Shown here one piece after another: positions 14,880 to 31,496 of a stretch of DNA of 34,642 bases. The notes under the pieces were generated by a model. The model was not told the DNA's origin, made no database searches, and saw only the letters and a list, made by a program, of their open reading frames with translations. This stretch comes from a virus. Position 1 is the first letter of the stretch; each line of letters starts with the position of its first letter. The stretch lies in the IMG/VR virus record IMGVR_UViG_3300045922_000130, positions 1 to 34,642 of that record, one strand, 5' to 3'. Both the position numbers and the translations under genes were made by a program.

Positions 14880-14890
14880 ATCAGTTAAGT

Positions 14891-14906
14891 GTAAACTTTA
14901 AATAGA
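14891..14906 (+). promoter_or_regulatory. Candidate late promoter, copy 3
   Basis: GTAAACTTTAAATAGA, the consensus form, in the 53-bp gap between the gp46-like gene and the first spike gene. No other copy lies before 27520, so it would drive about 12.5 kb of spike and lysis genes. Confidence 0.7.
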
Positions 14907-14932
14907 AGTAATTTTGATTTTGGATAGAGTAG

Positions 14933-17900
14933 ATGCCTGACGAATTAACTAGGATAGAGCCTAAAGATTTAGATACTATTAACGTCGTTGACAATATGGT
15001 ATTAGTAGGGCAACGTACTGATACAGATGCCATCGGCAAGTTTACAAATCAGGCCTATAAAAACCATTTAGGCATCCCTACAATAAACTCATCGTTATCT
15101 ACCTTATCTAATAATATTGATAGTATAGAAGAGTCTATAGTAGCCTTAGAAACTGTAACTTCAAGTATTGTAAATGTAAAACAATATGGGGCTGTAGGCG
15201 ACGGTGTTACTGATGATACAGAAGCTATACAAGATGCATTGGATGCTAATGCAGGAAGGGTTATTTTATTTCCAGTTGGCACCTACCTTATAACTGATAC
15301 CATTTATGTTCCACCAGCTACAATTATTAGGGGGGAAGGACCAGGGGATCCTTTCAATATTGGTGGAACTTACCCAAAAACTACAATTCAACTAAGTGTG
15401 ACTTCCGAGGGGATAAAAAGAATATGGACAGACGTTGGTTTGCCCAACACACCAGCAGGGACCTTGGTTGATGACCCTATTAGTGTTGGGGTTGTTCTCA
15501 CTGGTGGCGGTATAGGTGTTGAGGATATTAGGTTTAGAAGTAACACTGATGTGACCGATAGTGTTAACACTTGGGATGTCATCTTAATGGCTGCAGGTGC
15601 CTTCAGGTTACACATGAAAAATGTGGAAACTCAAGGTAGTGCAAGATATTGTGGCTTCCTATTGGATGCCACATGGTCTAATGCGAATACAGCTTTACAG
15701 AACTTACACACGTCTACCTATGGCAGGACTGTACCAAGCTCGGGCTCCAGCAATGAAATACACTTTCAAGATTGTTACTTCTTTGGAGGTGAATGGGGAT
15801 TTATTTGTCAAGGTACTAAGAGAACAGATACTAGTGCTAACATTTGGTCAACTGGTGGTGTTTCTGACTTAACAGCTATCGGTTGCAGGGTCGGCAACCA
15901 GCCAATTCGTCTAGGTACACAAGGTAATGGTCAACCTATATATTCATTAAATAGTGGTGGTTACAAAAGAGACCTCCACAACAGCTTCCAAAACAGATAT
16001 TGGTTTGGGTGCAGCTTTAGGGCAACATCTGGGTGTAGTGTTTACTTGGACAGAGGTAGGTTTGAGCAATTCATTGGAGTGTACGGGGAGCAACGTGGGG
16101 ACAGAGTACCATCAACTTTAGTGACTAAAACTATAGATGACCTAGGTTTGGTTAATGAAGCCTACACTGGCAACTGGGTAGGTACTCCTGCATTAGTACC
16201 AAGAGAAGTCAAAATCTACCTAACTGATACTTCAAGAATAGACCCTATTACCAACGGCATAAAACCCAGAACCTTATGGACCACGGCAACTGGTAGCTTT
16301 ATATTACAAGCTGTGGGGTACGACGACAGCGTTGGGCGGGTGTTTGTCACTGTAAATGAGTCAGATGTGACTGGAACAATAACGGCTGGACAAACTGTAA
16401 CACAGGCGGCTGGGCAAACCATTGGTACTTATGGTTTTTATTGCACAGACAGAGCAGAGACAACCTACACTCAAGGGCAGTCTGCCTTCAGAGGGCCAGA
16501 ACGAAACAGGATATCTTTTATTGGGGCTAATGGGGCTTTGATAGGTGGGAACTTTAGAACTGTTGGCCTTGTAAGTACTAAGGCGAACTTAGGTTTGGGA
16601 GCAAACGATAGTGTTAGTATAAATTGTGAGAGCGGGTCTCAAATTAACTTTAGGATTAACCAGTTCGGCACAAGTAGCCTGCCACAATCTAGGTTGCGGT
16701 ACTTAGGCACAAGCTTAGAGTCATACGACCTAGCAGATTTGGGTTCGACAACTAGACGCTGGGGAACTTTTTTTGGTACAAATTTAGACTTAACTAGTCC
16801 ATTGCCGATTACACAAGGCGGAACATCTTCAACTACGCCTGCAGCAGCTAGGGCAAGCTTGGGGGTTCGTTTCGACTCGACAAGGGAAATTATTAGGCAT
16901 GCTACTCTAGATATCGACCCAAACGGTGCTGGCTATATAAAACGAAATAATCAAGCTCAAATTAGAGAAAAAGGAATTACCGACAGTGGTTTTGCATCGT
17001 TAACTCGTGCTACAAGTGTAATGGCTACTAATGCTAGTGGTGTTTTATATACCGCTTCTTCAGGACAACCTACGTTGAATTACCCCAGAACTACCCTACC
17101 TGGCGGGCTTGGCATTTGGCGACAAGCTTCCAACTTAGTTTTGTGGAGCCAAGATACCAGCAATGCTTGGTGGATAAAAACAGGATTAGGCACACCTACA
17201 GTAAATCTATCTAATGCCCCAGATACTACCAGTACAGGTAATAGGTTAACTTGCGATACCTCTACAGGGTTACACGCACTTGCTTCATCATCTATGACTA
17301 GTTTAACCACTACTGATCATTATTCATTAGGGTTTTATATCCGTAGAAATAATCATAATAGATTTCGTTGTAATATTAAAAACAGCGCCACAACTGTTAT
17401 AGCTACGTTTGATATTAACTTATCGACAGGTATCCCTGTCATTAGTGGTACGAACGCTAGCTCTGTATTGGTAACAAACGCTAATGCTTCTCATGGGTAT
17501 CATAATATTCAAGTTTATACCCCAGTAACAATTGCGGCTACTGGAGCCACTATTGAGTTACTAATGTTAGATTCAAATGGTAATGAAAGTTGGACTTCTG
17601 TTGGCACTGAAGCAGTAGATGTTTGGGGCTTCCAATTTGAAAGGTGGCGACCAACTCCTTATGTAGGCGCAACCACCGGGAGTGCAGTCACAAGAAACGC
17701 TGATATTTATACAATACCTTTGTCTGAACAATGGTACAGCTCACCAGCAAGTATTTCTTGGTATATAGAAACAGTAATTGATTTTACAGAAGGATCAACT
17801 GCAGCTGAGTATAGACGTTATTTACCTGGTTTTAGGTTATCTACTACAGATTATATAATACCCTATATATCTGGGACAGGACTTTGGCTCGAAGCAAGAA

Positions 17901-18178
17901 ATGCTAGCGACACCGCTACAGCAACTCAATTTAGTGGGTTAACAATCCCTTCTGGAGCCTTATTAAAAATTGCATTAAGTTACACGAATGGAGTTACGAC
18001 TTGTGCCTTAAATGGATCTACCGCAACTATATCAAGAACTGTGACCCCTTCATCATTTACCACTTTAACTTTTGGCCAAAATACTGGGGACGGCCGAAAT
18101 TTAAATAGTAGGTTAGGTAGATTGTTGTTTTTCCCTTTATCATTAACAGCAACACAATTACAGGATATGACTAGATAA
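14933..18178 (+). CDS. Tailspike with beta-helix and lectin-like C-terminus
   Basis: The 1081-aa protein has three parts. Residues 1-48 are a short adaptor (LDTINVVDNMVLVGQR...GKF) also seen at the start of the products at 19166 and 27577, so it probably binds the baseplate. From about residue 83 (VKQYGAVGDGVTDDTEAIQ) to 650 runs a pectate-lyase-3 type right-handed beta-helix, the usual fold of phage polysaccharide depolymerases; the catalytic acids cannot be placed by eye. The last 430 residues, from LGVRFDSTREI, hold a carbohydrate-binding-like domain (NLVLWSQDTSNAWWIKTGLG) and a concanavalin/LamG-like domain (AEYRRYLPGF). This end is shared with the spike at 20998. First gene behind the late motif at 14891; its TAA overlaps the next ATG. 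Confidence 0.82.
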   Translation: MPDELTRIEPKDLDTINVVDNMVLVGQRTDTDAIGKFTNQAYKNHLGIPTINSSLSTLSNNIDSIEESIVALETVTSSIVNVKQYGAVGDGVTDDTEAIQDALDANAGRVILFPVGTYLITDTIYVPPATIIRGEGPGDPFNIGGTYPKTTIQLSVTSEGIKRIWTDVGLPNTPAGTLVDDPISVGVVLTGGGIGVEDIRFRSNTDVTDSVNTWDVILMAAGAFRLHMKNVETQGSARYCGFLLDATWSNANTALQNLHTSTYGRTVPSSGSSNEIHFQDCYFFGGEWGFICQGTKRTDTSANIWSTGGVSDLTAIGCRVGNQPIRLGTQGNGQPIYSLNSGGYKRDLHNSFQNRYWFGCSFRATSGCSVYLDRGRFEQFIGVYGEQRGDRVPSTLVTKTIDDLGLVNEAYTGNWVGTPALVPREVKIYLTDTSRIDPITNGIKPRTLWTTATGSFILQAVGYDDSVGRVFVTVNESDVTGTITAGQTVTQAAGQTIGTYGFYCTDRAETTYTQGQSAFRGPERNRISFIGANGALIGGNFRTVGLVSTKANLGLGANDSVSINCESGSQINFRINQFGTSSLPQSRLRYLGTSLESYDLADLGSTTRRWGTFFGTNLDLTSPLPITQGGTSSTTPAAARASLGVRFDSTREIIRHATLDIDPNGAGYIKRNNQAQIREKGITDSGFASLTRATSVMATNASGVLYTASSGQPTLNYPRTTLPGGLGIWRQASNLVLWSQDTSNAWWIKTGLGTPTVNLSNAPDTTSTGNRLTCDTSTGLHALASSSMTSLTTTDHYSLGFYIRRNNHNRFRCNIKNSATTVIATFDINLSTGIPVISGTNASSVLVTNANASHGYHNIQVYTPVTIAATGATIELLMLDSNGNESWTSVGTEAVDVWGFQFERWRPTPYVGATTGSAVTRNADIYTIPLSEQWYSSPASISWYIETVIDFTEGSTAAEYRRYLPGFRLSTTDYIIPYISGTGLWLEARNASDTATATQFSGLTIPSGALLKIALSYTNGVTTCALNGSTATISRTVTPSSFTTLTFGQNTGDGRNLNSRLGRLLFFPLSLTATQLQDMTR

Positions 18179-18450: not shown

Positions 18451-18453
18451 AAA

Positions 18454-18768
18454 ATGGATATTTTATCAAATCCTTCCTTATGGGAAACATTAAATGGGGC
18501 TAATGGGGGGTTAGTTCTTTTTATACTTTTTGTATGTGCAATAAGTTGGGGTAGTTGGCATGTTATACACTTTTGTGTTGTAACCGCTAAAGAATTAGCT
18601 ATGACTGTTAATTCAACTTTACAAGAAATTAAAACAGAAATTCACAATTTATCAGGTAAGGTAGAGAAATTGACTGAACTACCTAAAAAAGTAGAAATAC
18701 TATCGGATAGATTAGAAGCTATTGAAAGTGTGGCGGGCATACAGGAAGCAAAAAGGATTAAGCGGTAA
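18454..18768 (+). CDS. Holin-like small membrane protein with coiled coil, cassette 1 copy
   Basis: A 104-aa protein with one clear membrane helix at about residues 19-43 (GGLVLFILFVCAISWGSW) followed by a long amphipathic helix (LQEIKTEIHNLSGKVEKLTE) and a basic end. This layout fits XhlA-like or other holin-accessory proteins, or a membrane-anchored spike partner. It starts just after the previous stop, with GAGGG as ribosome site. The gene at 25939 holds the same position in cassette 2 but does not resemble it clearly in sequence. The amidase is 8 kb away, so a lysis role is unproven. Confidence 0.6.
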   Translation: MDILSNPSLWETLNGANGGLVLFILFVCAISWGSWHVIHFCVVTAKELAMTVNSTLQEIKTEIHNLSGKVEKLTELPKKVEILSDRLEAIESVAGIQEAKRIKR

Positions 18769-18770
18769 CT

Positions 18771-19151
18771 ATGACACTGTACAAATATACGAAAACTATT
18801 ACAGTTGATGCTAGCGGTGATGCTAGTGTAGACTTTGCGCCAATGAATGGGAAACTACTCTCTATACAGTACCGTAAGGCTAGTAGTGGCGGTTATGCTA
18901 ACGGTGTTGACTTCGTTGTAACTAATAAACGAAGTGGTGAGGTAGTCTGGCAAGAAGCTAACGTAAATGCCTCTAAAATAGTTTACCCGAATCGCCCGTC
19001 AAATAATAGTGATGGCACACCTTTGGCAAACGGGGTAGGTACTACAGGTATTTTTGATTATTTCTTTTTAATTGATGATATTATTAATATTGTGGTCGAT
19101 GAAGGTGGAAACGCTACCACAGGTGATTTTACTATAGTTTATGAAAGTTAA
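18771..19151 (+). CDS. Hypothetical beta-rich virion-type protein, 126 aa
   Basis: Placed 2 bases after the holin-like gene. The protein is strand-rich (YKYTKTITVDASGDASVDF, then KRSGEVVWQEANVNASKIVY) and ends with FDYFFLIDDIINIVVDEGGN and a short strand, a pattern seen in several small phage tail-region proteins of unknown role. No signal peptide or membrane segment is present. I do not recognise a named family; the neighbourhood points to a structural or spike-decorating part. Confidence 0.65.
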   Translation: MTLYKYTKTITVDASGDASVDFAPMNGKLLSIQYRKASSGGYANGVDFVVTNKRSGEVVWQEANVNASKIVYPNRPSNNSDGTPLANGVGTTGIFDYFFLIDDIINIVVDEGGNATTGDFTIVYES

Positions 19152-19165
19152 GTAGATTTATAATT

Positions 19166-20998
19166 ATGATGGCAGAGTCTTTTATAAGAATACATGAGTT
19201 AGATGATATTAACTTATCTAACAATACTTTTTTAGTTGGCTCTGAAAATAATGCAGCAGGTAGATTTACTGTCGAATCTTTGCGCAACTTTATTAGTACA
19301 ATAACTGGGTCTATTACGTTAAATCAAGTAACATCAAATGAAATTACATTTGGTAAAGGGGCTGACTTAATAGTTACGGCCAACCAAATTACAGTAACGC
19401 ATAGTCGTCATCTAGTTGATACTTTTAACTTGGCTACAAACGCTGATTTGCACAGTATTTTTGGAACTTTAGACACTAATAGTGTTTTGTTATTAAGTCC
19501 TTTAAACGCTAGTAGAAGTATAACTATAAAGCATAGTATAGGAAATATTTATACCCAATCAGGCACTGATATACTATTAAGTAATGATAAAAGTTATGCT
19601 CTTTTATATAATGTTGGATCTTCTCAAAATCCAATATGGCATGTAATAGCAACAAATGTAGCACAAGTAGCAATTGAAAGTGGTGAAGATTTTGTAGAGC
19701 CGATCGAACCCACTCTATCTTTAGACTTTAGTAAAAGAATATATCGACAATTAAGTGCTATAGATGAAAGTATTGTATCTAGTTTCATTAATGATATTTT
19801 AACTATAGATAGAAATAGTTTAGGAGCTTACCAACTATCAGGGGGCAAATTACAATTCGCACCAGTTGATAAAGTTGGTTATTGCTATTTCCCAAAAGAT
19901 ACAAATTCTGGAATACCTATTTATTCTGAAACAACTAACTTATTGTTGCATAGTGAAGATTTTGAAAACGCTTCATGGATTAAGACTGGTATACAGCAAG
20001 TAACAAATAATTTTGATATAGCTCCAGACGGAACAAATACACTAAACTTTATCTTGCCGAGCACGACAACATCGCAACATAGTATTCGTAGGAACATTAC
20101 TACTGTTGTTGGACAAGTTTATACTACAAGTATATATGCGAAAACATCTACTAGTAACTACCAACTAAGAATTCGTCACGGTTCTGGAGCTGGAGGTGAC
20201 TTTATGAGTGATGTCAACTTTAACTTATCAAACGGAAATAGGACACGTGGGGATGTTAATGGTAGATCATTTGAAATACCTTATTTAGGTTTTTATAGAT
20301 TTACTTTACCTTTTGTTGCTACTAGTACGACAACTAGAGTAGAATTTGCTATACATGGAGATGCTACCACTGCCGCTTGGTTGCCTAATGGAACAAGTGG
20401 TATTCTGTTGTGGGGAGCACAAACCAACGATGGGCGTATGACTGGATATACCAAATCCACCGGGACTGCTGGCGTATCTAATTTAACGGATATTCAAATA
20501 CCTTTAACAGAATCATGGTATCAAGATAGTTCTACGAAATGGACGTTATATTTAGAATATTATTTGCCAGAATTAACTGAAACATTATTTACATCTGCCA
20601 ATTATCGTCGACATCTATTCGACATAGGAAGCGACAGTGCTACTAGACTTTTAGTTTATTCATCAATTACTAGTGGAACCCCTCGAATATGTTTTGTGCA
20701 TACTGGAACAGGTGTAACAACACAAACCATAGCTAATACGTCTGTCCCTATATCAGAACTAAATAAAGTTTGTAAACTAGCGTTATCTTGGGATGGGGCG
20801 AATCTTTTACTTGGGTATAACGGACAGGTTTCTACTGTAGCTATAAATGAACCTTTAATATCTAACACGTATAATAGAATTAAGATTGGTCAACAGACAG
20901 GGTCAACCTCACGAGGGATGAACGGTAAAGCGATTAAGTTAAGTCATTATCCAAAAGCTTTTAATGCAGCGGAATTAGTAGGAGTTACAACTTTATAA
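19166..20998 (+). CDS. Tail fibre/adaptor protein with lectin-like C-terminus, no beta-helix
   Basis: The 610-aa product begins with the same adaptor as two spikes (IRIHELDDINLSNNTFLVGS, ...GRFTVESLRNF) and ends with two modules also found in them: a TNLLLHSEDFENASWIKTGI carbohydrate-binding-like segment (about 254-420) and a LamG-like domain (about 440-610). The central stretch is a short beta region; the pectate-lyase motif GAxGDGVTDDT is absent. Its TAA overlaps the ATG of the 20998 spike, which in turn has a beta-helix but no adaptor. The two may form one complex, this one serving as anchor. Start could be either of two adjacent ATG codons. Confidence 0.7.
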   Translation: MMAESFIRIHELDDINLSNNTFLVGSENNAAGRFTVESLRNFISTITGSITLNQVTSNEITFGKGADLIVTANQITVTHSRHLVDTFNLATNADLHSIFGTLDTNSVLLLSPLNASRSITIKHSIGNIYTQSGTDILLSNDKSYALLYNVGSSQNPIWHVIATNVAQVAIESGEDFVEPIEPTLSLDFSKRIYRQLSAIDESIVSSFINDILTIDRNSLGAYQLSGGKLQFAPVDKVGYCYFPKDTNSGIPIYSETTNLLLHSEDFENASWIKTGIQQVTNNFDIAPDGTNTLNFILPSTTTSQHSIRRNITTVVGQVYTTSIYAKTSTSNYQLRIRHGSGAGGDFMSDVNFNLSNGNRTRGDVNGRSFEIPYLGFYRFTLPFVATSTTTRVEFAIHGDATTAAWLPNGTSGILLWGAQTNDGRMTGYTKSTGTAGVSNLTDIQIPLTESWYQDSSTKWTLYLEYYLPELTETLFTSANYRRHLFDIGSDSATRLLVYSSITSGTPRICFVHTGTGVTTQTIANTSVPISELNKVCKLALSWDGANLLLGYNGQVSTVAINEPLISNTYNRIKIGQQTGSTSRGMNGKAIKLSHYPKAFNAAELVGVTTL

Positions 20999-21025
20999 TG
21001 TCAAAAGATTTTACAAAAAATATAA
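20993..21025 (+). repeat. Start repeat S1 (33 bp, identical to 27464-27496)
   Basis: The 33 bases from TTATAATGTCAAAAG onward are identical to 27464-27496. Here they hold the true start of the spike gene; at the second site they form a relic start. The GC-rich spike DNA begins directly after. Confidence 0.9.
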
Positions 21026-24000
21026 AAGATTACGTTGTTAGTGTAAAAGATTTTGGTGCAAAGGGTGACGGCGTTACGGATGACACCGTGGCCATACAAT
21101 CAGCTTTAGATAGTTCACAAGGTACGATAGTTACTTTCCCCAAGGGTGTCTACCGATGCACTTCCACACTATACGTGCCAAGTGGCACCACACTAGAAGG
21201 CATGGGCGTTGGTGGATGGAGAGCTAACCCGTTTAGTAGTCAGGCAGATGTAACCCTGTATGACTTAACTACAGGCAGTAACTTGTTATTTACAGGTGAT
21301 GGGGCGAAAGTTCACTACTTAGACTTTGTTACCAAGAACGATGAAGCTGGATTTAGCCGAAGCAACATAAACAGGTTACATAACAACGCAAACGATGAGA
21401 AGTTTGAGCTGTACGATTATACAAATGAAGATGCCAGCGGAACCACCAAGGCAACCCTAAAGCCATTCAGCGTATGTGTAATGTTGGGGGACGGGATTAA
21501 ACAGCACAGGACTATATTAAGAAACCTACGTGTTGTGACTAGCTGTCCTTCTGGGTCCGAGGTATACGGAACAGCTGGGTATGCAGTGCAGAATGAAATA
21601 CTGCCTTGGGCAAGGTGGGATATAGGTGTTTGGTCTAGGAGTGGATGGGATAACGCCATTTATGACAGCCAAGTGGTAGGCTACTACGGCATTAATGGGC
21701 TTTTAATAACCACCATGGCTAACACGACCCCTTACGAAGGTACCAGTCCAAACTTGGGGTTTGCTGAGAACTTTAGTATGCAAAACACAAGGATTCAATC
21801 GGGGCTTGCTATAAGGTCAGGCGATGTAATCCCAGTTCTTAGCAAAACGTCAAATAGCATTACTGTCGAGTGGAGTGCCTCACACAGATTTAACACTAGC
21901 GGAAGCTTAACCACTGATGATGGAACCTTAGTCTACACTGGGCTAACATACACCGCAGGATCCCCAAACACCCTAACCTTTACAGGCATAGCTAATACCT
22001 CCAACGTGTCGTCAACGGCTGGTGGCACATTAATACGCAGGACCCACAACGGAGGCCTTGCAAACACAAGCTTTATAAACTGTGAAATTAGTGACTTTGG
22101 CCATTCAAGCAGGACAGACAGGGCAAGCGACAGTTACCCCACAGGTTACAAGAGTAAGTACCGCCCAGCACTTGAGATGAGCGGGCACCCCTTGAGGGGG
22201 GTTAGCTTTATAGACTGCTTGTATGACTCTACAAGCTACGCCCACATCCACCTTGGCTTAGCAAGGGATATAGAGTTTAACAACTGTTACGGGGAGCCTA
22301 AGGCTTACAAGCTTACCCCAACAAGCAATTCATTGAGTGGTGGTGGGCTATTTATTTGTGGTCCCCGCAGCACAAAGGATTATGGCAGAATTTACAAAGG
22401 CGTTATTACTAATTATGGCATTACTTTTGTTGGTAATGTAAACCGGGAACCTTTAGTACCTGTCATTACAGGGACGAGAGTGTCTGGGTTTACCGATGTT
22501 TTTAACCCAGCTCAATACTTTGACAACAGATGGTTTCATCAGCTAGGAACTAGCGCCGCCGGGCAAAAAGATATAAATATGCTCCCCCTAAAAGGCGGCA
22601 GGCTTGTTATGAAAGACGCAAGCGGTAATGAACGTTGGGCACTTGATGATACCACCGACACCATTACTGACTCCACGCAAAGCACAACTTATGCTTTTGG
22701 TGCACAGCTAATCGTCCCTAATGACAGAGAGTTTGAAATAAAAAACGCAACAGGGTTAAAGTTTCTTGAAAAACCTAGCAACGATAACAATGTTATTCAT
22801 CGCAACTTGGCTTTTAATGCTTCTGACAGCACCCTTACTATATCATCTGGAGCTATTACTGTAACAAATAACTTCACTAGAATAGACACTGAAGGCTCTG
22901 CTGCTTTAGATGAGCTTACAACCATCAACAAGGCCAACAGTGGGGGGACGTTTCCGCTTTGGTTGCGTACAGTTTCATCTAGTCGAGATGTGCTGATTAA
23001 ACATCAGCAAGCTGGCAATATCCGCACCTTTAACGGTCAAGATATACTACTAGACCACACAAATAAAGTGGCTTTCTTGTTTTGGAATGGGGTTTTCTGG
23101 CACGCCATATCGCTAGATAGTGCTACGACACAACTAATAAATGCTCACGGCGATACTGACTGGATGCACATGCTGCTTTATGGGCAGTCGTTAAGTTATG
23201 GTGCAAGCTCTACCCCTGTTATATCCACAACACAGCCCTACAATAATGTGAAGATGAATGGCACGGTAATCACTGATAATTTTATTGGGACGAGAACCAG
23301 CTTTGATGCCTTGGTAGAAACCAGCCGAGAGACCCCTACAAGTGGCATGCTCAACAAACTAAAGCAGAGACTTGGGAACACTGCGTTTACTAATACCAGA
23401 TTTATAGGTACTGCCGCTGGTGATGGTGGGCAAACCTTAGAGCAATTGGGGAAGGGAAGCTTTAACTTTAACAGAATGATTGGCGAGATACAGTCGGCTA
23501 AAAACATAGCCACTGGGCTAGGGGACACCTATCAAGTTGGGGCTATGGGCTTTGTTCATGGTGAATCCGCTTACAGAGATGCGCTTAGCTCTGCTGAGTA
23601 CCAACGCCAATTCCTTAATTTCAAGCGTGACTTTGCTGATGCTGTAAGCAATGTTACCAGACAAAACAATGTGCCTGTTATGATAACTGCGCAGACGGCT
23701 TCTAGTCGATATTATGCTGGGTCAACAAAGTTACCTACTATTGCTCTGATACAAGCAGCTATGGCTAAGGACTACAAGGATATAACAATAGCCTGCCCCA
23801 TCTATTGCTTGGAGCATGCGGAGGACAACCTGCACCTTTCCGCTGAAGGTAGTCGGATGCTTGGCTATTATCTGGGTTTGGCGGCAAAAAGAACTGTGTT
23901 TGACAAGGTGGATTGGCGACCTTTAGAAATGATTGCGCTAAACGTCCAGCCTACTTTTGTAGATGTGAAGCACAACGTCCCTTACGGAAAGATACAATTT

Positions 24001-25689
24001 AAAACAGGTATTGTTGCGGATACAACGAACAAAGGCTTTGATATTTATGATGAGACCAACACACTAAGGGATATAATAACTGCTGTACAAATTATAAACT
24101 TTGACACAGTAAGGCTCACGTTGTCGTCCCCCTTGGCAATAGGCGACAGTGTATGCTATGCGTGGGGCAGAAGCTCTCAAAACGGTTCCAGCTTTGGAGG
24201 TAACGCTACAGGACCCAGAGGCAACCTCTGCGACCAGCAAGGCGATATAGAAAACTACACAGGTGTTGACAACAATACTCGTTATTTGGATAATTACGCT
24301 TTAGTAGGAAAAATGACCATCGGCGAGTCTTCATTTGGGGGGACTGACGCGGATACGGCTGCTAAAGCAAGAGCAAACTTAGGCATCCGCCCCGAGGCTA
24401 CAAGGGAGCTGATGCGCCGCCCCACCCTAACGATTGATGGTGTTAATGGCGTGTTTTTTAAGCGAAACAGGGCGGTATCTATCAGCCAAGGCGACCTGTT
24501 AGCCTCCAGCTTTGCCACCTTTACCCGAGCCACGGCTTCGCTTTACACTGACGTAAGCGGGACAATACGATCCGCTGCTAGTGGCGTGCCTACCTACAAC
24601 TACCCACGCAACAGCCAAAGTGGAGGCTTGGGCATATTTAGGGCTGCTACCAACCTAATCGAGTGGAGCCAAGACTTTGGCAACGCATGGTGGACAAAAA
24701 CTAACGCAACAGTACCCTCAACCACTGGGGCTGGCGCACCCGATGGTACGGCTACCGTCAACACTATTCAAGCCAGTGCGGGGGCTGGCATACACGGCGT
24801 GCAATCTACATCAATGGGGAGCCTTACCACCACGGATAACTATGGCTACAGCGTGTACCTTGCAGCAGGCACGGCCAGTAAGGCAAGGATTAAGGTAGTC
24901 AACTCATCTAGCATGGTAATAGGCCAAGTGGATATTGACTTAACCACCTTTGTTGCCTCGGGCGTGGACGCTCTCAATTGTGCTATCTTCCCCCCTGTGG
25001 GCAATAGCAACTTAGGCAGGGTGGAGCTTTACCCTAGTGCTGCTATTGGCACAACAAGCGCAACCGTTGAGATACTGATACTAGACGGCAGCGGGAACGA
25101 AAGCTACACCGCAGCAGGCACAGAGACAATCCTTGCTTGGGGCGCACAGTTTGAGCGTTACAGGCCGACCCCATACTTGCTAAGTGCTGGTAGCAGTGGC
25201 GCACGCAACGCAGACACTTTGACTTTGGCTACAACAGAGGAGTGGTACGGCACGCCAAGGGGCATCACCTTGGCGATGGATACCGTGCTTGAACACTTTA
25301 ACGGCCCAACTACTGCCGAGTACAGGCGTTACCTGTTTACCACGCGCCTTGGTATAACTGATTTTATAAAGGCATATGTGGTTGGCAATCAAATAGTTAT
25401 TGGAGCAAAAAACAACAACGACACCGTAACGCTTACAACGGTTGCAGGCGTAACACTTACCCCCAACACGCAAATACGCTTAGCTGTCTCTACTAATGGT
25501 GCAAACGTGAATGTAGGAGTAAACGGCACAACCTTTAGCTTTGCCCGCACCTTACGCCCCAACGTTTTTACTCAACTCTCAGTGGGGGCAAACGAAAGTG
25601 ACCTAAGGCAACTCAACGCCCGCCTAGGGAAGCTAGACTTTTGGCCATTGGCCATGACGGCCAACCAGCTTGGAGACCTAACACGATGA
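20998..25689 (+). CDS. Giant tailspike: beta-helix, SGNH esterase, lectin-like end
   Basis: At 1563 aa this is the longest gene. KDFGAKGDGVTDDTVAIQ (residues 17-34) opens a pectate-lyase-3 beta-helix without an N-terminal adaptor. After about residue 640 there is a mid domain, then an SGNH/sialate-O-acetylesterase-like domain at about 715-970: GQS with Ser731, an AGDGGQT loop, HGES (854-857) and DNLH (Asp943, His946) match the SGNH blocks. From LGIRPEATREL (about 1130) to the end it is related to the end of the 14933 spike. So it may both cleave and deacetylate a surface glycan. It is GC-richer than its neighbours: I count 34 G or C in 24961-25020 but 17 in 26821-26880. The first 9 codons are AT-rich and come from repeat S1. 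Overlaps the genes on both sides by a few bases. Confidence 0.83.
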   Translation: MSKDFTKNIKDYVVSVKDFGAKGDGVTDDTVAIQSALDSSQGTIVTFPKGVYRCTSTLYVPSGTTLEGMGVGGWRANPFSSQADVTLYDLTTGSNLLFTGDGAKVHYLDFVTKNDEAGFSRSNINRLHNNANDEKFELYDYTNEDASGTTKATLKPFSVCVMLGDGIKQHRTILRNLRVVTSCPSGSEVYGTAGYAVQNEILPWARWDIGVWSRSGWDNAIYDSQVVGYYGINGLLITTMANTTPYEGTSPNLGFAENFSMQNTRIQSGLAIRSGDVIPVLSKTSNSITVEWSASHRFNTSGSLTTDDGTLVYTGLTYTAGSPNTLTFTGIANTSNVSSTAGGTLIRRTHNGGLANTSFINCEISDFGHSSRTDRASDSYPTGYKSKYRPALEMSGHPLRGVSFIDCLYDSTSYAHIHLGLARDIEFNNCYGEPKAYKLTPTSNSLSGGGLFICGPRSTKDYGRIYKGVITNYGITFVGNVNREPLVPVITGTRVSGFTDVFNPAQYFDNRWFHQLGTSAAGQKDINMLPLKGGRLVMKDASGNERWALDDTTDTITDSTQSTTYAFGAQLIVPNDREFEIKNATGLKFLEKPSNDNNVIHRNLAFNASDSTLTISSGAITVTNNFTRIDTEGSAALDELTTINKANSGGTFPLWLRTVSSSRDVLIKHQQAGNIRTFNGQDILLDHTNKVAFLFWNGVFWHAISLDSATTQLINAHGDTDWMHMLLYGQSLSYGASSTPVISTTQPYNNVKMNGTVITDNFIGTRTSFDALVETSRETPTSGMLNKLKQRLGNTAFTNTRFIGTAAGDGGQTLEQLGKGSFNFNRMIGEIQSAKNIATGLGDTYQVGAMGFVHGESAYRDALSSAEYQRQFLNFKRDFADAVSNVTRQNNVPVMITAQTASSRYYAGSTKLPTIALIQAAMAKDYKDITIACPIYCLEHAEDNLHLSAEGSRMLGYYLGLAAKRTVFDKVDWRPLEMIALNVQPTFVDVKHNVPYGKIQFKTGIVADTTNKGFDIYDETNTLRDIITAVQIINFDTVRLTLSSPLAIGDSVCYAWGRSSQNGSSFGGNATGPRGNLCDQQGDIENYTGVDNNTRYLDNYALVGKMTIGESSFGGTDADTAAKARANLGIRPEATRELMRRPTLTIDGVNGVFFKRNRAVSISQGDLLASSFATFTRATASLYTDVSGTIRSAASGVPTYNYPRNSQSGGLGIFRAATNLIEWSQDFGNAWWTKTNATVPSTTGAGAPDGTATVNTIQASAGAGIHGVQSTSMGSLTTTDNYGYSVYLAAGTASKARIKVVNSSSMVIGQVDIDLTTFVASGVDALNCAIFPPVGNSNLGRVELYPSAAIGTTSATVEILILDGSGNESYTAAGTETILAWGAQFERYRPTPYLLSAGSSGARNADTLTLATTEEWYGTPRGITLAMDTVLEHFNGPTTAEYRRYLFTTRLGITDFIKAYVVGNQIVIGAKNNNDTVTLTTVAGVTLTPNTQIRLAVSTNGANVNVGVNGTTFSFARTLRPNVFTQLSVGANESDLRQLNARLGKLDFWPLAMTANQLGDLTR

Positions 25690-25934
25690 GCTATCACCCC
25701 AACAACTACTTTTTGGTAGGAAACCTTGAAGGGGAGCAAGGGTATTACGTCAACGCCCCTGTAACCCCCTTAACAGGCGACTTGCCCGCCGATGTGTTGG
25801 CTTACAGTATTGCCCCGCCTGCCACGCCCAAGGTAAGCCTGCTAGGGGTGGATGCGGCCGATGTTGTCTACCTAAAGTTTGCTGACGAAGCCGAAGCCCG
25901 CACCGTGCTTGGCTTGCCACAAGACGAGGAGTAA
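25686..25934 (+). CDS. Small spike-associated protein, cassette 2 copy
   Basis: An 82-aa protein started by the ATG that overlaps the stop of the spike gene (ATGA). An upstream in-frame start inside the spike gene is less likely. It shares with the 18178 product the GDLPADVLAY motif, PPATP and an aliphatic end with acidic tail, and takes the same place after a spike, so the two are homologous parts of duplicated cassettes. Codon use is GC-rich, like the spike before it. Function unknown. Confidence 0.75.
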   Translation: MSYHPNNYFLVGNLEGEQGYYVNAPVTPLTGDLPADVLAYSIAPPATPKVSLLGVDAADVVYLKFADEAEARTVLGLPQDEE

Positions 25935-25938
25935 TTCC

Positions 25939-26226
25939 ATGACAGAAGTGGAACTTATTAAACTAACCGTTGCAGTGCTTGGCAATAGCCCTGTTGCAGC
26001 TGGCATGGTGGCCTCTGCCATGATCCTTAAAAGCGTGATAACCCGCTGGCTTGATTTGCGAGACAGGGAGCTGGAAAAAGAGCCACGGGAAAACAAAGAG
26101 GGGATTATTACAGGCCTCAAGGGTGTGACTAAGCAGATTGCAGAAGCAGTAGATACAACCAAGGCAGGGGCTAGCACCTTGCTTGACCAAGGCTTACTAA
26201 GGGGAGGACACATCATTTTATGTTAA
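25939..26226 (+). CDS. Holin-like small membrane protein, cassette 2, with a junction-made C-terminus
   Basis: Start chosen at the ATG at 25939 because GAGGAG lies 6 nt upstream; longer forms begin inside the previous gene. The 95-aa product has one hydrophobic helix at about residues 10-33 (VAVLGNSPVAAGMVASAMI), then a charged region (DLRDRELEKEPRENKE) and an amphipathic end, resembling a phage holin or holin-like accessory protein. The last five codons (HIILC) and the stop are read out of frame from the spike-end relic E1 at 26210-26267, so the original C-terminus was probably lost when this block was joined. Confidence 0.6.
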   Translation: MTEVELIKLTVAVLGNSPVAAGMVASAMILKSVITRWLDLRDRELEKEPRENKEGIITGLKGVTKQIAEAVDTTKAGASTLLDQGLLRGGHIILC

Positions 26227-26267
26227 AGAGTCTGGAGCAGGTAACACTGGATGGGTTGCGAAATAAT
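26210..26267 (+). pseudogene. Relic of a spike gene 3' end (E1, 57 of 58 bp as in 30058-30115)
   Basis: These 58 bases are the same, but for one base, as the last 58 around the stop of the spike gene at 27577-30114. In the old frame they still encode SFYVKESGAGNTGWVAK and a TAA, with nothing of that gene in front. They mark the right edge of the GC-rich block and lie directly before the hydrolase gene, so a whole spike gene once ended here. Confidence 0.9.
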
Positions 26268-26921
26268 ATGAATAAAGATACTGTTTTAATTGTTCACGGT
26301 GTTGGCGAAGGATTTTCAACTGAAGTCACGGTTGATGCTATTTCAAAAGTTTTGAAAATTGACCATAATCGCATTAGACTATTTGATTATGCGAAATATC
26401 TCGATTCTATTATTTGGCCTAGGTATACTTTATTCCCTATAACTATGTGGGCTAAAAAAAATAAGTTTGCAGATCAAGTTGGCGATGTTACAGCATGGGT
26501 CGGCTCTGGAGGAGCTAGAGAAAGAATAGTTTCAAATCTATTAAAAACTATATTATATGAAAAACCCAAATATATTGTAGCACATAGTTTAGGTAGTGTT
26601 ATAGGTTATCAAGCATTACTAAAATGTAATGACTTTAAAGGGGTACCTGAGCTTGATTATAACCCTATTTATGTTGGACTAGGTAGTCCTTTACATCTTT
26701 GGACGTTGAGGCAACTTAGTGGCTTGAATAATGAACATAATACACATATAAGTGAAAATAGTGTTTTTATTCAGGGTAAAAAAGATCCAATAGCTAAGTG
26801 GGGTAAAAACCCTTGGAAGTTTTTAGATAATAATGTTAATAATTTAGGGGTGCTTACCCCTAATATTGATCACGACTTAATAGGTTATTTAAATTATATT
26901 GCAGAGGAAGTTAAGTTATGA
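26268..26921 (+). CDS. Alpha/beta-hydrolase (lipase/esterase type)
   Basis: The 217-aa protein begins with a strand and oxyanion-type loop (TVLIVHGVGEG, residues 5-15). It carries the nucleophile elbow AHSLGS with Ser107, and likely acid and base at Asp173 (GKKDP) and His202 (DHDLIGYL). This is the alpha/beta-hydrolase triad order. It stands just before the amidase, their frames overlapping by four bases, so a role in lysis or in cutting a lipid or ester bond in the envelope is reasonable, as LysB does in mycobacteriophages; that host type is not implied. I start it at ATG 26268. A longer form from 26220 would be read out of frame through the spike relic, and although GGGGAGG lies 12 nt before that ATG, its 16 extra residues look accidental. 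AT-rich again. Confidence 0.75.
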   Translation: MNKDTVLIVHGVGEGFSTEVTVDAISKVLKIDHNRIRLFDYAKYLDSIIWPRYTLFPITMWAKKNKFADQVGDVTAWVGSGGARERIVSNLLKTILYEKPKYIVAHSLGSVIGYQALLKCNDFKGVPELDYNPIYVGLGSPLHLWTLRQLSGLNNEHNTHISENSVFIQGKKDPIAKWGKNPWKFLDNNVNNLGVLTPNIDHDLIGYLNYIAEEVKL

Positions 26922-27460
26922 GCAAACCTAAAAGAATAATTATTCATTGGACTGCAGGAGGGTTAAAAGCTAATTCAACTGATTTAAGCCATTACCACTA
27001 TATTTTTGAGGGGGATGGTACTATAAGAAACGGTCGGCATAGTGTATTATCTAATTGCCCTATTGTTAAAGATAGGGAATATGCCATGCACTGTGGTGGA
27101 GGTAACTCTTGGTCGGCGGGATATGCGTTATGTGGAGGTCCCCGTGGTTATAGGTTGGGGGAGATAACTCGTTTGTCGTATGAAAGAATGTGTCTTCGTA
27201 TAGCTCAAGATATACATAAATGGGGTATCACTTTAGGTAAAGATACCGTTATGACCCACTATGAGTTTGGGTTAGCTAACCCTAGAACATCTAGCGCTGG
27301 GAAGCCGGATATTAGTAGCTTGCCTTGGGCACCTGAAATACATGCTAAGGATGTCGGCGATCATATTAGAAGTTCAATAAATTGGTATTTAAAAAATCAA
27401 GTATTGAAAAAAGTTGTGAAAGAAAAATCACCAATCCCTGATAATGGTTCAGAGGATTAG
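26918..27460 (+). CDS. Endolysin: N-acetylmuramoyl-L-alanine amidase (PGRP/amidase-2 type)
   Basis: A 180-aa enzyme expected to cut the bond between N-acetylmuramic acid and the L-alanine of the peptide stem at the end of infection. The fold signature is RIIIHWTAGG at the start (zinc ligand His10), SHYHYIFEGDGTI, the AGYALCGG region, and THYEFG (His114), with Asp131 in GKPD at the place of the third ligand. T7 lysozyme has Cys there and many amidases Asp or Cys. No signal peptide or cell-wall-binding domain is present; the last 30 residues are charged. It overlaps the hydrolase by four bases. It therefore needs a holin, perhaps one of the membrane proteins at 18454 or 25939. Confidence 0.87.
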   Translation: MSKPKRIIIHWTAGGLKANSTDLSHYHYIFEGDGTIRNGRHSVLSNCPIVKDREYAMHCGGGNSWSAGYALCGGPRGYRLGEITRLSYERMCLRIAQDIHKWGITLGKDTVMTHYEFGLANPRTSSAGKPDISSLPWAPEIHAKDVGDHIRSSINWYLKNQVLKKVVKEKSPIPDNGSED

Positions 27461-27463
27461 GTG

Positions 27464-27496
27464 TTATAATGTCAAAAGATTTTACAAAAAATATAA
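27464..27496 (+). repeat. Start repeat S2 (33 bp, identical to 20993-21025)
   Basis: Second copy of the spike start repeat, three bases after the amidase stop. After base 27496 the two copies diverge. Confidence 0.9.
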
Positions 27497-27516
27497 TAAA
27501 ATACGAAACCTTCTAA
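27469..27516 (+). pseudogene. Relic spike start, 15-codon frame
   Basis: ATG 27469 opens the frame MSKDFTKNIIKYETF and a stop. The first nine residues equal those of the 20998 spike; then the frame is lost. It is the orphan 5' end of a spike gene whose body has been replaced by the promoter and gene that follow. Confidence 0.85.
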
Positions 27517-27519
27517 AGA

Positions 27520-27535
27520 GTAAACTTTAAGTAGA
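27520..27535 (+). promoter_or_regulatory. Candidate late promoter, copy 4
   Basis: GTAAACTTTAAGTAGA, one base from the consensus form, 41 bp before the fourth spike gene and just after the relic start. It would give this spike gene its own late transcript. Confidence 0.65.
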
Positions 27536-27576
27536 GTGTGCCTATTTGGCATTAAATAAGTTTGCGAGAATTTTAA

Positions 27577-30114
27577 ATGTCAGAAATCCAAAAAGTATAT
27601 TCACCAAAAAAATTAAGTGACCTTGTTAGCTTACCTAACTTAAGTGATGACACTGTTGTATTAGCGAGTAATAATAATCAAACGGGCAAACTAACTTTAT
27701 TAGGTTTACGTCAATACTTAAATGTGGATTCAATTGATACTGACTTTGCCGGTGTTTTGGCAAGTATTGGCACTTTAAATGAAAACGTTGCTCAAAATAC
27801 TGCTGATATTGAAGGTTTAGAAACAGTTAGTGCTACAAAACTGGGTTATAGTATTGTAACTGGAAATACTGTAGTTAATAGTCCTGCTGGTGATATAGCA
27901 TTTAATGTGAATGGAAATCAAGCACTTAATGTTACTTCTAGTGGTGTTGGATATGGTATAAATAATGTTAAAGACTTAGTTGGTGATGTAAACCCTGAAG
28001 GTGTTATATCAGCTAATAAAGGTAGTACCTATAGAAATTATAATGGTAGTGGTGGTCAAACACTTTGGCATAAAGTTCAAGGAAATGATGCTAACGGATG
28101 GTTGCCTGTTTCATCTAGTGTTGGCGTTAATGTAAAAGACTTTGGCGCAAAAGGTGATGGGGTTACGGACGATACCGTAGCTATTCAAGCTGCCTTAACC
28201 TTTGGGGCTGGAAATACAATATATTTTCCTAAGGGTAATTATATATGTTCCAACACACTAATTCTTCCAGACGCAACGACTCTAATTGGAGCAGGGGTTG
28301 GTCATTGGAGACCAGGAACCTTTAATGACTTAGATGAATATACGTTAGATCATGGAACTAACTTAGTTTTTGTGGGCACTGGGCCAAAGACCTATACAAT
28401 GGACTTTGTGACAGATATGCGCTGTTCTGGGCATGTTTTTACAAATCCAGAAATAGAATACACCCTTGATAGTGAGTTTTCATTAACTAACTTTACAAAT
28501 AATGATGCCTCCGAGGTTACATCTGCAACTTTAAAACCTTTTAGTGTCGCTATATTTTCTAACTCTCGTAATGGTAACATATTAAAAAATATGAGAGTTG
28601 TGCTTAACAACCCTAGTGTTGGGGAACAATATGGGGTAGGTAACTACAGAAGTGTGTCATCTTTATCATGGGGGGATAATTGGGATGTTGGCATATTCTC
28701 ATCATCTACAAGAGCATTTGAAACCCACAATGTTCAAGTTGTTGGTTACTGGAGAATTGCGGCTTTACTGCTATCCCCAGTAGACTATGGGTCAGAGGGG
28801 TTATCCGGGCTATCAGAGATGTGTAAATTTTACGATAGTATTTTCCAAGGGTTACGTGGAGTTTCCTTAAGATCTGGTGATCAATGGCCTATTGTAAGTA
28901 AAACGAGTAATAGTGTTACGACTAGATGGACAGGTAGCCATACTTTCCCATTGTCTGGTAATATAAGAATAGATGGTTCTATTTATTCTTACACTGGACT
29001 AACTTATAGTGCTGCTGGACCAATTTTAACTTTCACTGGGATATCAGACACTTCCTCTGTAGTTGCTGGCCAAAGTTTAATTGAGCGGACTTCCACACAA
29101 GGTTTAGCTAATACCACATTTTATGGGTGTGATATTACAGACTTAAGTCATAGTTCACGAATCCTTGAATATAATCCAGAATTCACTTTGGATGCTCGCC
29201 AGCCAGGTTCTGCACTAGAAATATCTGGTCAAGACTTAAGGGGTATTAATTTTATAGGGTGTTCTTTTTATGTTAATGGACCAGTATTAGGACACTTGGG
29301 GCGTGCTAGAAATATTAATTTCATAAGTTGTCATTTTGAAACAAAAACTAACAATAGTGCCGTATCTACAAACAGTGGTATCCTAGGTTCCGCATGGCTT
29401 GCCGGTGGGGATCAAAGTAATTCAGATAATTACCCCCTTACTAGAACTGACGATGTTAGGTTTATTGACACGATTGCTGATGACCCAAGGATTGATCGAT
29501 CTCCATTAATACCCTCTTCTAGTGGTAGTCGTCTAAAAGATTGTGGTTTTTTTAGACCAAATCAATACGTAGATACCTCCTATCCCACCAATTCTTACCC
29601 TAATCAATGGCAAAAAAATTATAGTACGGGAACATGGGGTGTCCAAAGTTCAACTGGGGTGCCACGCCTCGTTGTTCATGATACGCATGTGCAATCAGCA
29701 TCGGATTTTAGAGTAAGCAATTCAGCTAATAGATTACAACTAGAGCAAACAGACGCTCCAGTTAATGAGAAAGTCTGGGAGTTCACCAATACAAACTCTA
29801 GTGATGGGACTTTAATTCTACGAACAGCTTTAGATAACTTTAGTCCTGGAAATAATGCTTATACCATTTTACGGGATACTAGCAATGTGGTGGGGCAAAC
29901 TTGGAACTTGAATAGTGGGTTGTTTAGTTTTGAGGGTGGACCTATCCGTCTTGGATCTAGTGGTGCGCCAACGGTATTCACTGGATCAGGGACACCCGAA
30001 GGTGTTATAACCGCCCCTATCGGTTCCACGTATCATCGTACCGATGGAGGGGCGGGTACATCATTTTATGTTAAAGAGTCTGGAGCAGGCAACACTGGAT
30101 GGGTTGCGAAATAA
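27577..30114 (+). CDS. Tailspike with adaptor, beta-helix and short end module
   Basis: The 845-aa protein starts with the adaptor (LPNLSDDTVVLASNNNQTGK, residues 18-37) and a short helix with heptads. A module at about residues 132-172 carries NPEGVISANKGSTYRNYNG and ends in GNDANGWLPV. KDFGAKGDGVTDDTVAIQ (about 189-206) opens a pectate-lyase-3 beta-helix clearly related to that of the 20998 spike (shared LKPFSV, SKTSNS, LANT.F..C, RG..FI.C blocks). It ends with a second copy of the module, TPEGVITAPIGSTYHRTDGG, closing SGAGNTGWVAK. It lacks the lectin-like end and esterase. This is the gene whose 3' end matches relic E1. It probably degrades or binds a host surface glycan different from that of the other spikes. 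Confidence 0.82.
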   Translation: MSEIQKVYSPKKLSDLVSLPNLSDDTVVLASNNNQTGKLTLLGLRQYLNVDSIDTDFAGVLASIGTLNENVAQNTADIEGLETVSATKLGYSIVTGNTVVNSPAGDIAFNVNGNQALNVTSSGVGYGINNVKDLVGDVNPEGVISANKGSTYRNYNGSGGQTLWHKVQGNDANGWLPVSSSVGVNVKDFGAKGDGVTDDTVAIQAALTFGAGNTIYFPKGNYICSNTLILPDATTLIGAGVGHWRPGTFNDLDEYTLDHGTNLVFVGTGPKTYTMDFVTDMRCSGHVFTNPEIEYTLDSEFSLTNFTNNDASEVTSATLKPFSVAIFSNSRNGNILKNMRVVLNNPSVGEQYGVGNYRSVSSLSWGDNWDVGIFSSSTRAFETHNVQVVGYWRIAALLLSPVDYGSEGLSGLSEMCKFYDSIFQGLRGVSLRSGDQWPIVSKTSNSVTTRWTGSHTFPLSGNIRIDGSIYSYTGLTYSAAGPILTFTGISDTSSVVAGQSLIERTSTQGLANTTFYGCDITDLSHSSRILEYNPEFTLDARQPGSALEISGQDLRGINFIGCSFYVNGPVLGHLGRARNINFISCHFETKTNNSAVSTNSGILGSAWLAGGDQSNSDNYPLTRTDDVRFIDTIADDPRIDRSPLIPSSSGSRLKDCGFFRPNQYVDTSYPTNSYPNQWQKNYSTGTWGVQSSTGVPRLVVHDTHVQSASDFRVSNSANRLQLEQTDAPVNEKVWEFTNTNSSDGTLILRTALDNFSPGNNAYTILRDTSNVVGQTWNLNSGLFSFEGGPIRLGSSGAPTVFTGSGTPEGVITAPIGSTYHRTDGGAGTSFYVKESGAGNTGWVAK

Positions 30115-30115
30115 T
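30058..30115 (+). repeat. End repeat E2 (in-frame copy of 26210-26267)
   Basis: The 58 bases covering the last 18 codons and stop of the spike gene plus one base; one difference from E1 (C here, T there, silent in the spike frame: GGC-AAC against GGT-AAC). Confidence 0.9.
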
Positions 30116-30130
30116 TTATTAAATCTTTTT

Positions 30131-30157
30131 GTTTACCGTAGGTAAACTTTAAATAGA
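30131..30157 (+). promoter_or_regulatory. Candidate late promoter, copy 5, overlapping a palindrome
   Basis: GTAAACTTTAAATAGA (30142-30157) is the consensus form, 25 bp before the baseplate J gene. The palindrome GTTTACC-GTA-GGTAAAC (30131-30147) overlaps its 5' half. The dyad is absent at the other four copies and could be an operator or a weak terminator stem for the spike gene. Confidence 0.65.
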
Positions 30158-30182
30158 AAGCTCTTGAGATTTTTAAAATAAA

Positions 30183-31496
30183 ATGGCACTAAATATACCG
30201 TCTACTGTACAATTAATTTTTGATAGGTTAAGGTCTGATGCACAACAGGAATTAACTAATGTTAACGTGTGGACACGTAATAACTTTTTCAGTGCTTTAC
30301 TTGCCGCGTGTGCTGGACGGTTTAGGGCCTTATATCAAGTATTCGTAACAGGTATCAATGAAGCTGCAATACCTATAACGGCAAGAGATGAATACTTAGA
30401 CCAGTGGGCTGAATTACGAGGTATCACAAGGCTTCCAGCTAGCTCATCTAAAGGTTATGTAAACTTTCCTTGTATTGATAATGTTACTATTACAGAAGAT
30501 ACAGTTTTACGAGATGATACTGGGTTAGAATATATAGTTCAATCAGACTCTACTGATACCACACAAGTATTAAGCTTAGCTAGTTTAACAAGGGTTGGTA
30601 ATACTGCAACAGCAACTACATCCGAGCCTCATGGTTTTGCTACTGGACAAACTGTCACTATTAGTGGAGCTTCACAATCAGCTTATAATAAGAATTTTGT
30701 AATTACAGCAACAAGTAATTTTACTTTTACATTTACTGTATCAGGAAACCCAACAACCCCTGCAACTGGAACGATTTTAGCCACTAGTCGTTTTATTACC
30801 GTTGAGGTAGAATCTGCCGAAAATGGTGTTATTTATAATAAAGAGAATGGAGCAACCATAAGTATATCAACCCCACTACCATTTTTGAATGATACTGGAT
30901 ATGTTGTTTTTGACGGTCTTAATGGTGGAGCAGACGAAGAAACAGATAGCAGACTACAATTTAGAAATAAATTAGCTTGGCAAAATCCTATAGCTTTATT
31001 TAGTAAAACTTTTTTAGAACAGAAGGCATTAGAACTTTCTTTTGTTGAGCGTGTTTTTGTGCAAGAAATAACACCTGGTATTGGCGATACCACTATATAT
31101 TTCACTTCCAATACAACGGCTAACGCTCAACCTACGGCTACCGAAATATCCGCTTTTCAAAAGCATATGTCAAAGTTTAAGCCAGCGCATATGTCAAGTA
31201 ATGACTATGTATTAAATGCTGCTAGTGCTGTACCAGTTAATATAACAATATCATCTCTAGTGCCTAATAACGGTACATTGAAAACTGCTATAAATGAAAC
31301 TTTGAGGGAATGGTTTAATTTAGAGGTGGAACCTGGTCAAGATATTTTGGTTTCTCAACTATATGGAGTTATTTATAGAACTACTGATGTTGAACGTGGG
31401 GAAAATCCAAGAACATTCATAATATCTTTGCCCTCTGGCTCTGTTTCAATAGCTTTAAATCAGAAGGCCGTTCTTGGGAGTGTAACATACACCTAA
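30183..31496 (+). CDS. Baseplate J-like wedge protein (Mu gp47-like) with inserted domain
   Basis: The 437-aa protein shows the baseplate J plan: N-terminal helices (about 1-60, with WTRNNFFSALLAACAGRFRA), the EYLDQWAELRGITRLPAS motif near residues 70-87, a barrel, GGADEETDSRLQFRNKLAW near 245-265, and a C-terminal PVNITISSLVPNNGT and VEPGQDILVSQLY region. It is the core wedge protein that triggers sheath contraction. Residues about 130-200 (LASLTRVGN to TPATGTI) are an inserted beta-sandwich, which breaks the barrel and closely matches the insert in the 4178 protein. In Mu this gene follows gp46 directly. The stop overlaps the gp48 start. Confidence 0.88.
   Translation: MALNIPSTVQLIFDRLRSDAQQELTNVNVWTRNNFFSALLAACAGRFRALYQVFVTGINEAAIPITARDEYLDQWAELRGITRLPASSSKGYVNFPCIDNVTITEDTVLRDDTGLEYIVQSDSTDTTQVLSLASLTRVGNTATATTSEPHGFATGQTVTISGASQSAYNKNFVITATSNFTFTFTVSGNPTTPATGTILATSRFITVEVESAENGVIYNKENGATISISTPLPFLNDTGYVVFDGLNGGADEETDSRLQFRNKLAWQNPIALFSKTFLEQKALELSFVERVFVQEITPGIGDTTIYFTSNTTANAQPTATEISAFQKHMSKFKPAHMSSNDYVLNAASAVPVNITISSLVPNNGTLKTAINETLREWFNLEVEPGQDILVSQLYGVIYRTTDVERGENPRTFIISLPSGSVSIALNQKAVLGSVTYT

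What the first reader, a model, noticed from the sequence alone, without database searches (positions are those of the whole stretch)
20993..30115. Alternating start and end repeats show two spike loci with complementary relics
A 33-bp start repeat occurs at 20993 and 27464 (identical) and a 58-bp end repeat at 26210 and 30058 (57 of 58). Their order is S1-E1-S2-E2. At locus 1 the start is in use (first codons of the 1563-aa spike) and the end is a relic. At locus 2 the start is a 15-codon relic and the end is in use. So each locus keeps the opposite end of one ancestral gene. This pattern is expected when a receptor-binding gene is duplicated and each copy has part of its body replaced, or when cassettes are exchanged between fixed homologous borders. 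The near identity of the repeats implies a recent event and leaves sites for further exchange.
Basis: partly seen in the sequence, partly recalled or inferred. Interest (0 to 1): 0.85.

Follow-up and report, generated by a model that had tools for sequence, protein, structure and literature searches.

The report
Swapped phage tailspike leaving relics
In this bacterial virus a foreign tailspike gene was pasted between the preserved start and end of an older spike gene, and a second spike locus nearby keeps another copy of the same start and end, a clear but ordinary example of how phages change the part that recognises their host.

Summary
The repeats are real. S1 and S2 (20993, 27464) match at 33/33 bases and E1 and E2 (26210, 30058) at 57/58. 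They are the only long direct repeats in the window; simulated sequences reach 14-18 bases. The window is a myovirus contig.

Base composition switches from native to foreign at about 21055 and back at about 26212, where S1 ends and E1 lies. Codon usage between them is foreign; p610, hydrolase, amidase and spike 2 are native. So a foreign cassette (spike body, C-terminal fibre domain, c1, c2) replaced the body of a native gene that ran from S1 to E1.

Two corrections. The E peptide is a common C-terminal cap of unrelated tailspikes (260 phage records, once each; directly before the stop in 24/24 metagenomic hits). S is a short leader of the kind that starts anchor-less spikes; leader + beta-helix + cap genes exist elsewhere, and Vibrio phage D148 re-uses one leader in three spikes. 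So S2 and E2 need not come from one duplicated gene, although DNA near-identity favours recent copying.

No intact MSKDFTKN...GWVAK gene was found. S1-S2 or E1-E2 deletion would remove the amidase, so such recombinants may be unfit.

The parts
14933..18178 (+). spike 0, 1081 aa: adaptor, beta-helix, fibre C-terminal domain
   Evidence: Pect-lyase_RHGA_epim; C-terminal 453 aa 42% identical to spike 1 C-terminus
19166..20998 (+). p610, 610-aa fibre with N-terminal adaptor; stop overlaps the spike 1 start (TAATG)
   Evidence: phrog_5939 tail protein; matches RcGTA head spike fibre 6tb9; native codon usage
20993..21034 (+). S1: leader of spike 1 (MSKDFTKNIKDY), native composition
20998..25689 (+). 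spike 1, 1563 aa: short leader, beta-helix, esterase-like (SASA) domain, fibre C-terminal domain
   Evidence: the SASA match is just below the Pfam cut-off, phrog_4201 tail fibre is strong
21037..21096 (+). conserved beta-helix start (VSVKDFGAKGDGVTDDT), 82% identical in DNA to spike 2; likely left crossover zone
21055..26212 (+). foreign cassette (spike 1 body, esterase-like part, C-terminal domain, c1, c2); end points approximate
   Evidence: composition change-points; codon-usage correlation with core genes 0.19-0.62 against 0.89-0.96 for p610, hyd, ami and spike 2
25686..25934 (+). c1, 82 aa, small gene travelling with the fibre C-terminal domain
   Evidence: homologous to p18178 (after spike 0) and to a 77-aa gene after the L021 fibre
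25939..26226 (+). c2, 95 aa, small protein with a moderately hydrophobic segment; its last codons lie in the E1 region
   Evidence: no family match
26200..26267 (+). E1: relic of the native C-terminal cap (GEDTSFYVKESGAGNTGWVAK*), now read in other frames
26268..26921 (+). hyd, 217-aa putative alpha/beta hydrolase (VHGVG, AHSLGS); longest ORF starts at 26220 inside E1
   Evidence: sequence motifs; weak Abhydrolase match below cut-off
26918..27460 (+). ami, amidase, predicted endolysin
   Evidence: Amidase_2, phrog_5867 endolysin
27464..27505 (+). S2: leader relic, 15-codon ORF 27469-27516
27520..27535 (+). promoter-like motif GTAAACTTTAAGTAGA upstream of spike 2
27577..30114 (+). spike 2, 845 aa: N-terminal adaptor, beta-helix (phrog_33794), C-terminal cap
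   Evidence: body 39% identical to spike 1 residues 14-540
30048..30115 (+). E2: cap in use, last codons of spike 2

Best explanation
This is a receptor-binding-protein block remodelled by modular recombination. The phage had two neighbouring anchor-less secondary spikes (or one, recently copied) built as a short leader (S), a beta-helix body and a common C-terminal cap (E). At locus 1 a foreign cassette (beta-helix, esterase-like part, fibre C-terminal domain, c1, c2) recombined in. It joined the native leader at or near the conserved beta-helix start (VKDFGAKGDGVTDD) and ended at the native cap, so leader S1 still starts the new spike and E1 is left as a 21-codon relic. At locus 2 a native promoter and adaptor segment, or a whole adaptor-bearing spike, took over downstream of leader S2, leaving S2 as a 15-codon relic and keeping cap E2. 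Shown: the repeats, the foreign cassette with its borders at S1 and E1, and the leader and cap architecture in other phages. Inferred: that two S-to-E genes existed, that S is a docking leader, and the events at locus 2.
For: Repeats real and unique in the window. Foreign composition and codon usage bounded at S1 and E1. The fibre C-terminal domain with c1 is a recurrent unit, seen in the window after spike 0 and in L021/L022. E is always terminal on unrelated bodies. Short leader + beta-helix + cap genes exist (L167, L318, variant in L189). One leader type is shared by three nearby spikes in Vibrio phage D148. E1-E2 identity is far above between-phage identity. Papers: short conserved peptides start secondary RBPs, and truncated RBPs occur (PMC6872550); adding a tailspike gene that shared an end with a resident one gave tsp4-tsp5 recombinants, or tsp3 deletion with tsp4 truncation, in the laboratory (PMC11414711).
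Against: No other copy of S, and so no intact MSKDFTKN...GWVAK gene, was found in 2.9 million viral contigs. The donor was not found. Between S1 and the spike 2 body only the 60-base conserved beta-helix start is alike, at 82%, so the recent shared DNA is limited to S and E. No T4 gp10-like docking domain was found by Pfam. The locus 2 steps rest on anatomy alone.
Confidence: 0.6

Rival explanations
1. Strict reader model: one S-to-E gene was tandemly duplicated, hyd-ami came to lie between the copies, then copy 1 lost its body and copy 2 lost its start.
For: S is 100% and E 98% identical, in the order S-E-S-E. Both spike bodies are of one family, 39% identical. E1-E2 identity exceeds all between-phage values.
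Against: Needs at least four events. The cap and the leader type are re-used modules in other phages. No unduplicated or intact relative found.
Confidence: 0.2
2. Independent re-use of modules: S and E were copied separately (recombination or gene conversion at leaders and caps) and never belonged to the same gene at locus 2. S2 is the remnant of a different, lost spike.
For: E caps sit on unrelated bodies. A leader type is shared by nearby spikes with different bodies in D148. Spike 2 has its own promoter-like motif and adaptor.
Against: E occurs only once per genome in 260 named records, so caps are not commonly multiplied. Both repeats are nearly identical, which suits one episode.
Confidence: 0.15
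3. Fixed-border cassette locus: S and E are maintained as recombination borders so that spike bodies are swapped repeatedly between co-infecting phages.
For: Foreign/native borders coincide with S1 and E1. Tailspike genes of Ackermannviridae are swapped by recombination at conserved ends (PMC11414711).
Against: Only one swap is visible. S and E are 33 and 58 bases, short for homologous recombination. No other S-E locus was found.
Confidence: 0.05

Closest known systems
Anchor-branched receptor-binding protein systems (Klebsiella KP32/KP34 viruses, K1-5; Latka et al. 2019, PMC6872550)
   Same: Anchor-less secondary spike with a short N-terminal leader, beta-helix body, truncated RBPs, bodies exchanged horizontally
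   Different: Conservation of the leader across relatives and a T4 gp10-like docking domain were not shown here; two leader copies in one genome, one of them a relic
Ackermannviridae tailspike recombination (PMC11414711)
   Same: Shared ends between spike genes in one genome give chimeras, deletions and truncated spikes
   Different: There the shared end is an N-terminal XD domain; here the shared stretches are 33 and 58 bases, and the foreign piece also brings c1 and c2
Vibrio phage D148 spikes with one leader type
   Same: Several spikes in one genome start with the same short leader before a beta-helix
   Different: All three D148 genes are intact and the leader stretch is only 72-78% alike in DNA; different leader sequence
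C-terminal cap ...TDGGAGTTLYVKESGAGNTGWVAK of tailspikes (phrog_21909 and phrog_32123 match it in spike 2)
   Same: E2 is this cap, directly before the stop
   Different: Here a second, out-of-use copy persists as E1

Membership tests
Anchor-less secondary receptor-binding protein (branched RBP system) | No N-terminal anchor; short peptide directly before the enzymatic body | tested here: met
   Spike 1 body starts at residue 14; spike 0, p610 and spike 2 carry longer N-terminal parts resembling each other
Anchor-less secondary receptor-binding protein (branched RBP system) | Short peptide conserved across related phages | tested here: inconclusive
   Only the copy S2 in the same genome; none in viral contigs; no close relatives held
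Anchor-less secondary receptor-binding protein (branched RBP system) | T4 gp10-like docking domain in a partner RBP | tested here: inconclusive
   No Pfam match in p610, spike 0 or spike 2 even at E up to 1, but in PMC6872550 that domain was found by HHpred, which is not available here
Anchor-less secondary receptor-binding protein (branched RBP system) | Beta-helical polysaccharide-acting body | tested here: met
   Pect-lyase_RHGA_epim above cut-off, phrog_33794; enzymatic activity itself not testable
Horizontally replaced tailspike module | Foreign composition between native borders | tested here: met
Horizontally replaced tailspike module | Donor or sister copy in another phage | tested here: inconclusive
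   Only distant relatives: L021/L022 48-49% over the C-terminal domain plus c1
Invertible fibre cassette | Inverted repeats flanking the exchanged segment | tested here: not met
   Repeats are direct; no strong inverted repeat in 18000-31500
Diversity-generating retroelement | Template/variable repeat pair differing at adenines | tested here: not met
   S pair identical, E pair differs by one T/C; no other long repeat in the window

The most novel reading that the evidence does not exclude
The leader and the widespread C-terminal cap act together as standing borders of an acceptor site, at which whole spike-body cassettes are repeatedly exchanged between phages, leaving opposite relics at neighbouring loci.
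Probability: 0.12. Interest if true: 0.6.

Novelty: new member of a known kind. Interest (0 to 1): 0.38.

Why it matters
It gives a readable case of tailspike replacement, with the native head in use, the native tail left as a relic, and the foreign piece delimited to within tens of bases on both sides. It also shows that a C-terminal end, VKESGAGNTGWVAK, is an interchangeable cap shared by otherwise unrelated tailspikes of many phages, which suggests a common folding or capping role that could be tested.

Tried and rejected
Invertible cassette and diversity-generating retroelement: no fitting repeats. Near DNA matches to named phages: none. Spike 2 as single query in viral contigs gave one weak locus. 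S as a degenerate DNA pattern gave no hit. c1 and c2 in named phages: no match. c2 against the 97-aa gene of L021: no detectable homology. Relatives of a virus record cannot be drawn in the genome search. Bodies of the phrog_33794 family in genomes and viral contigs: six full-length relatives at 31-36%, none with S or E ends. AlphaFold model of the cap (80 aa, 19 sequences) had mean pLDDT 61.9, too low for a fold search. A literal search for the cap peptide in papers gave nothing.

Full report
Setting. The window is a 34,642-base virus record of a phage with a contractile tail: sheath, tape measure, baseplate hub, baseplate J and wedge proteins are recognised. Its nearest held sheath relatives are metagenomic contigs at up to about 50% identity; named phages are far away.

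Observation. The four repeats are as described. S1/S2 match at 33 of 33 bases and E1/E2 at 57 of 58, in the order S1-E1-S2-E2. They are the only exact direct repeats of 18 bases or more in the window; the longest in simulated sequences is 14-18.

Locus 1. Between S1 and E1 lies foreign DNA. G+C rises from about 0.35 to 0.44-0.55. The correlation of codon usage with core genes is 0.60, 0.62 and 0.29 for the three parts of spike 1 and 0.19 for c1, against 0.96 for p610, 0.89 for hyd, 0.91 for ami and 0.92 for spike 2. A likelihood change-point on base composition, which knows nothing of the repeats, falls at 21055 (21028-21071) on the left and 26212 (26183-26266) on the right; S1 ends at 21034 and E1 spans 26200-26267. 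So the native head and tail of one gene flank the foreign piece. The left joint lies in or next to the conserved beta-helix start, where spike 1 and spike 2 are 82% identical in DNA over 60 bases and then drop to 43-62%. This is a plausible crossover site; the exact joint is inferred. E1 keeps 21 codons of the cap frame, with a stop just upstream.

Anatomy of the cassette. Spike 1 has a leader of 13 residues, a beta-helix of the phrog_33794 family shared with spike 2 (39% over 543 columns), an esterase-like part and a fibre C-terminal domain shared with spike 0 (42%) and p610 (26%). The C-terminal domain and the small gene c1 recur together: in the window as spike 0 with p18178, and in L021/L022 as a fibre with a 77-aa homologue. 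The cassette thus looks like a travelling unit.

What E is. The E peptide is a common C-terminal cap. It is matched in 260 named phage records, once in each. Five of these were translated (L010-L013, L015) and in all five the cap is directly before the stop. In viral contigs an exact degenerate pattern found 24 stretches, and in all 24 the cap is directly before the stop, on bodies that differ widely. DNA identity of these to E2 is 39-48 of 58, so 57 of 58 between E1 and E2 shows recent shared ancestry within this lineage even though the peptide itself is ordinary.

What S is. No other contig carries S. Its architecture is familiar: of 122 beta-helix stretches examined, 17 have a start codon within 25 residues of the beta-helix motif, many with the leader M-x-LTK-x-x-x-x-MI-x-G; L167 and L318 combine such a leader with the E cap, and L189 with a variant of it. 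Vibrio phage D148 uses one leader type for three nearby spikes. Secondary receptor-binding proteins of Klebsiella phages start with short conserved peptides thought to dock them to a first spike (PMC6872550). A docking role for S is therefore plausible but untested here.

Locus 2. S2 is a 15-codon relic directly after the amidase stop. It is followed by a promoter-like motif (27520) and spike 2, which has an adaptor of about 180 residues, a native body and the cap in use. Either the promoter and adaptor were inserted between S2 and the spike 2 body, or spike 2 replaced an S2 gene. Everything here has native codon usage, so composition cannot decide.

The replacement at locus 1 is well supported. 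That S and E are opposite ends of one duplicated gene is possible but not needed, because both are re-usable modules. The suggested recombinants S1-S2 and E1-E2 within one genome would delete the amidase (26918-27460), the only endolysin recognised among the proteins examined, so exchange between genomes is the likelier use (inference). A laboratory precedent for chimeras and truncations caused by shared ends of spike genes is phage S117 (PMC11414711).

Limits. No close relative and no donor were found; the record may be a fragment; Pfam did not show a docking domain; the cap model is too poor to interpret.

Noticed in passing
14879-30183: In 24 distinct relative contigs the gpV-like gene and the baseplate J gene are adjacent (gap -72 to 261 bases by match ends); here they are 15.3 kb apart, so the whole spike and lysis block sits between them.
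   Followed up: partly
5300, 14891, 27520, 30142 (weaker 2346, 8166): Promoter-like motif GTAAACTTTAAATAGA 41-57 bases upstream of the sheath, spike 0, spike 2 and baseplate J genes; exact at both borders of the spike block; 7 matches against 1.9 expected.
   Followed up: partly
30048-30115 and L159-L182: C-terminal cap VKESGAGNTGWVAK is shared by unrelated tailspikes of many phages, always terminal; in several named phages the next small gene starts at or overlapping its stop. Function unknown.
   Followed up: partly
19166-20998: p610 residues 207-443 match the head spike fibre of the Rhodobacter capsulatus gene transfer agent (6tb9).
   Followed up: no
26268-26921: Putative alpha/beta hydrolase next to the amidase, possibly a lysis esterase; no family above cut-off.
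   Followed up: no
27995-28120: Spike 2 carries a second, diverged cap-like motif (PEGVISANKGSTYRNYNGSGGQTLWHKVQGNDANGWL) just before its beta-helix.
   Followed up: no
1931-2237: Cluster of four tRNA genes (Glu, Met, Asn, Pro) on the minus strand.
   Followed up: no
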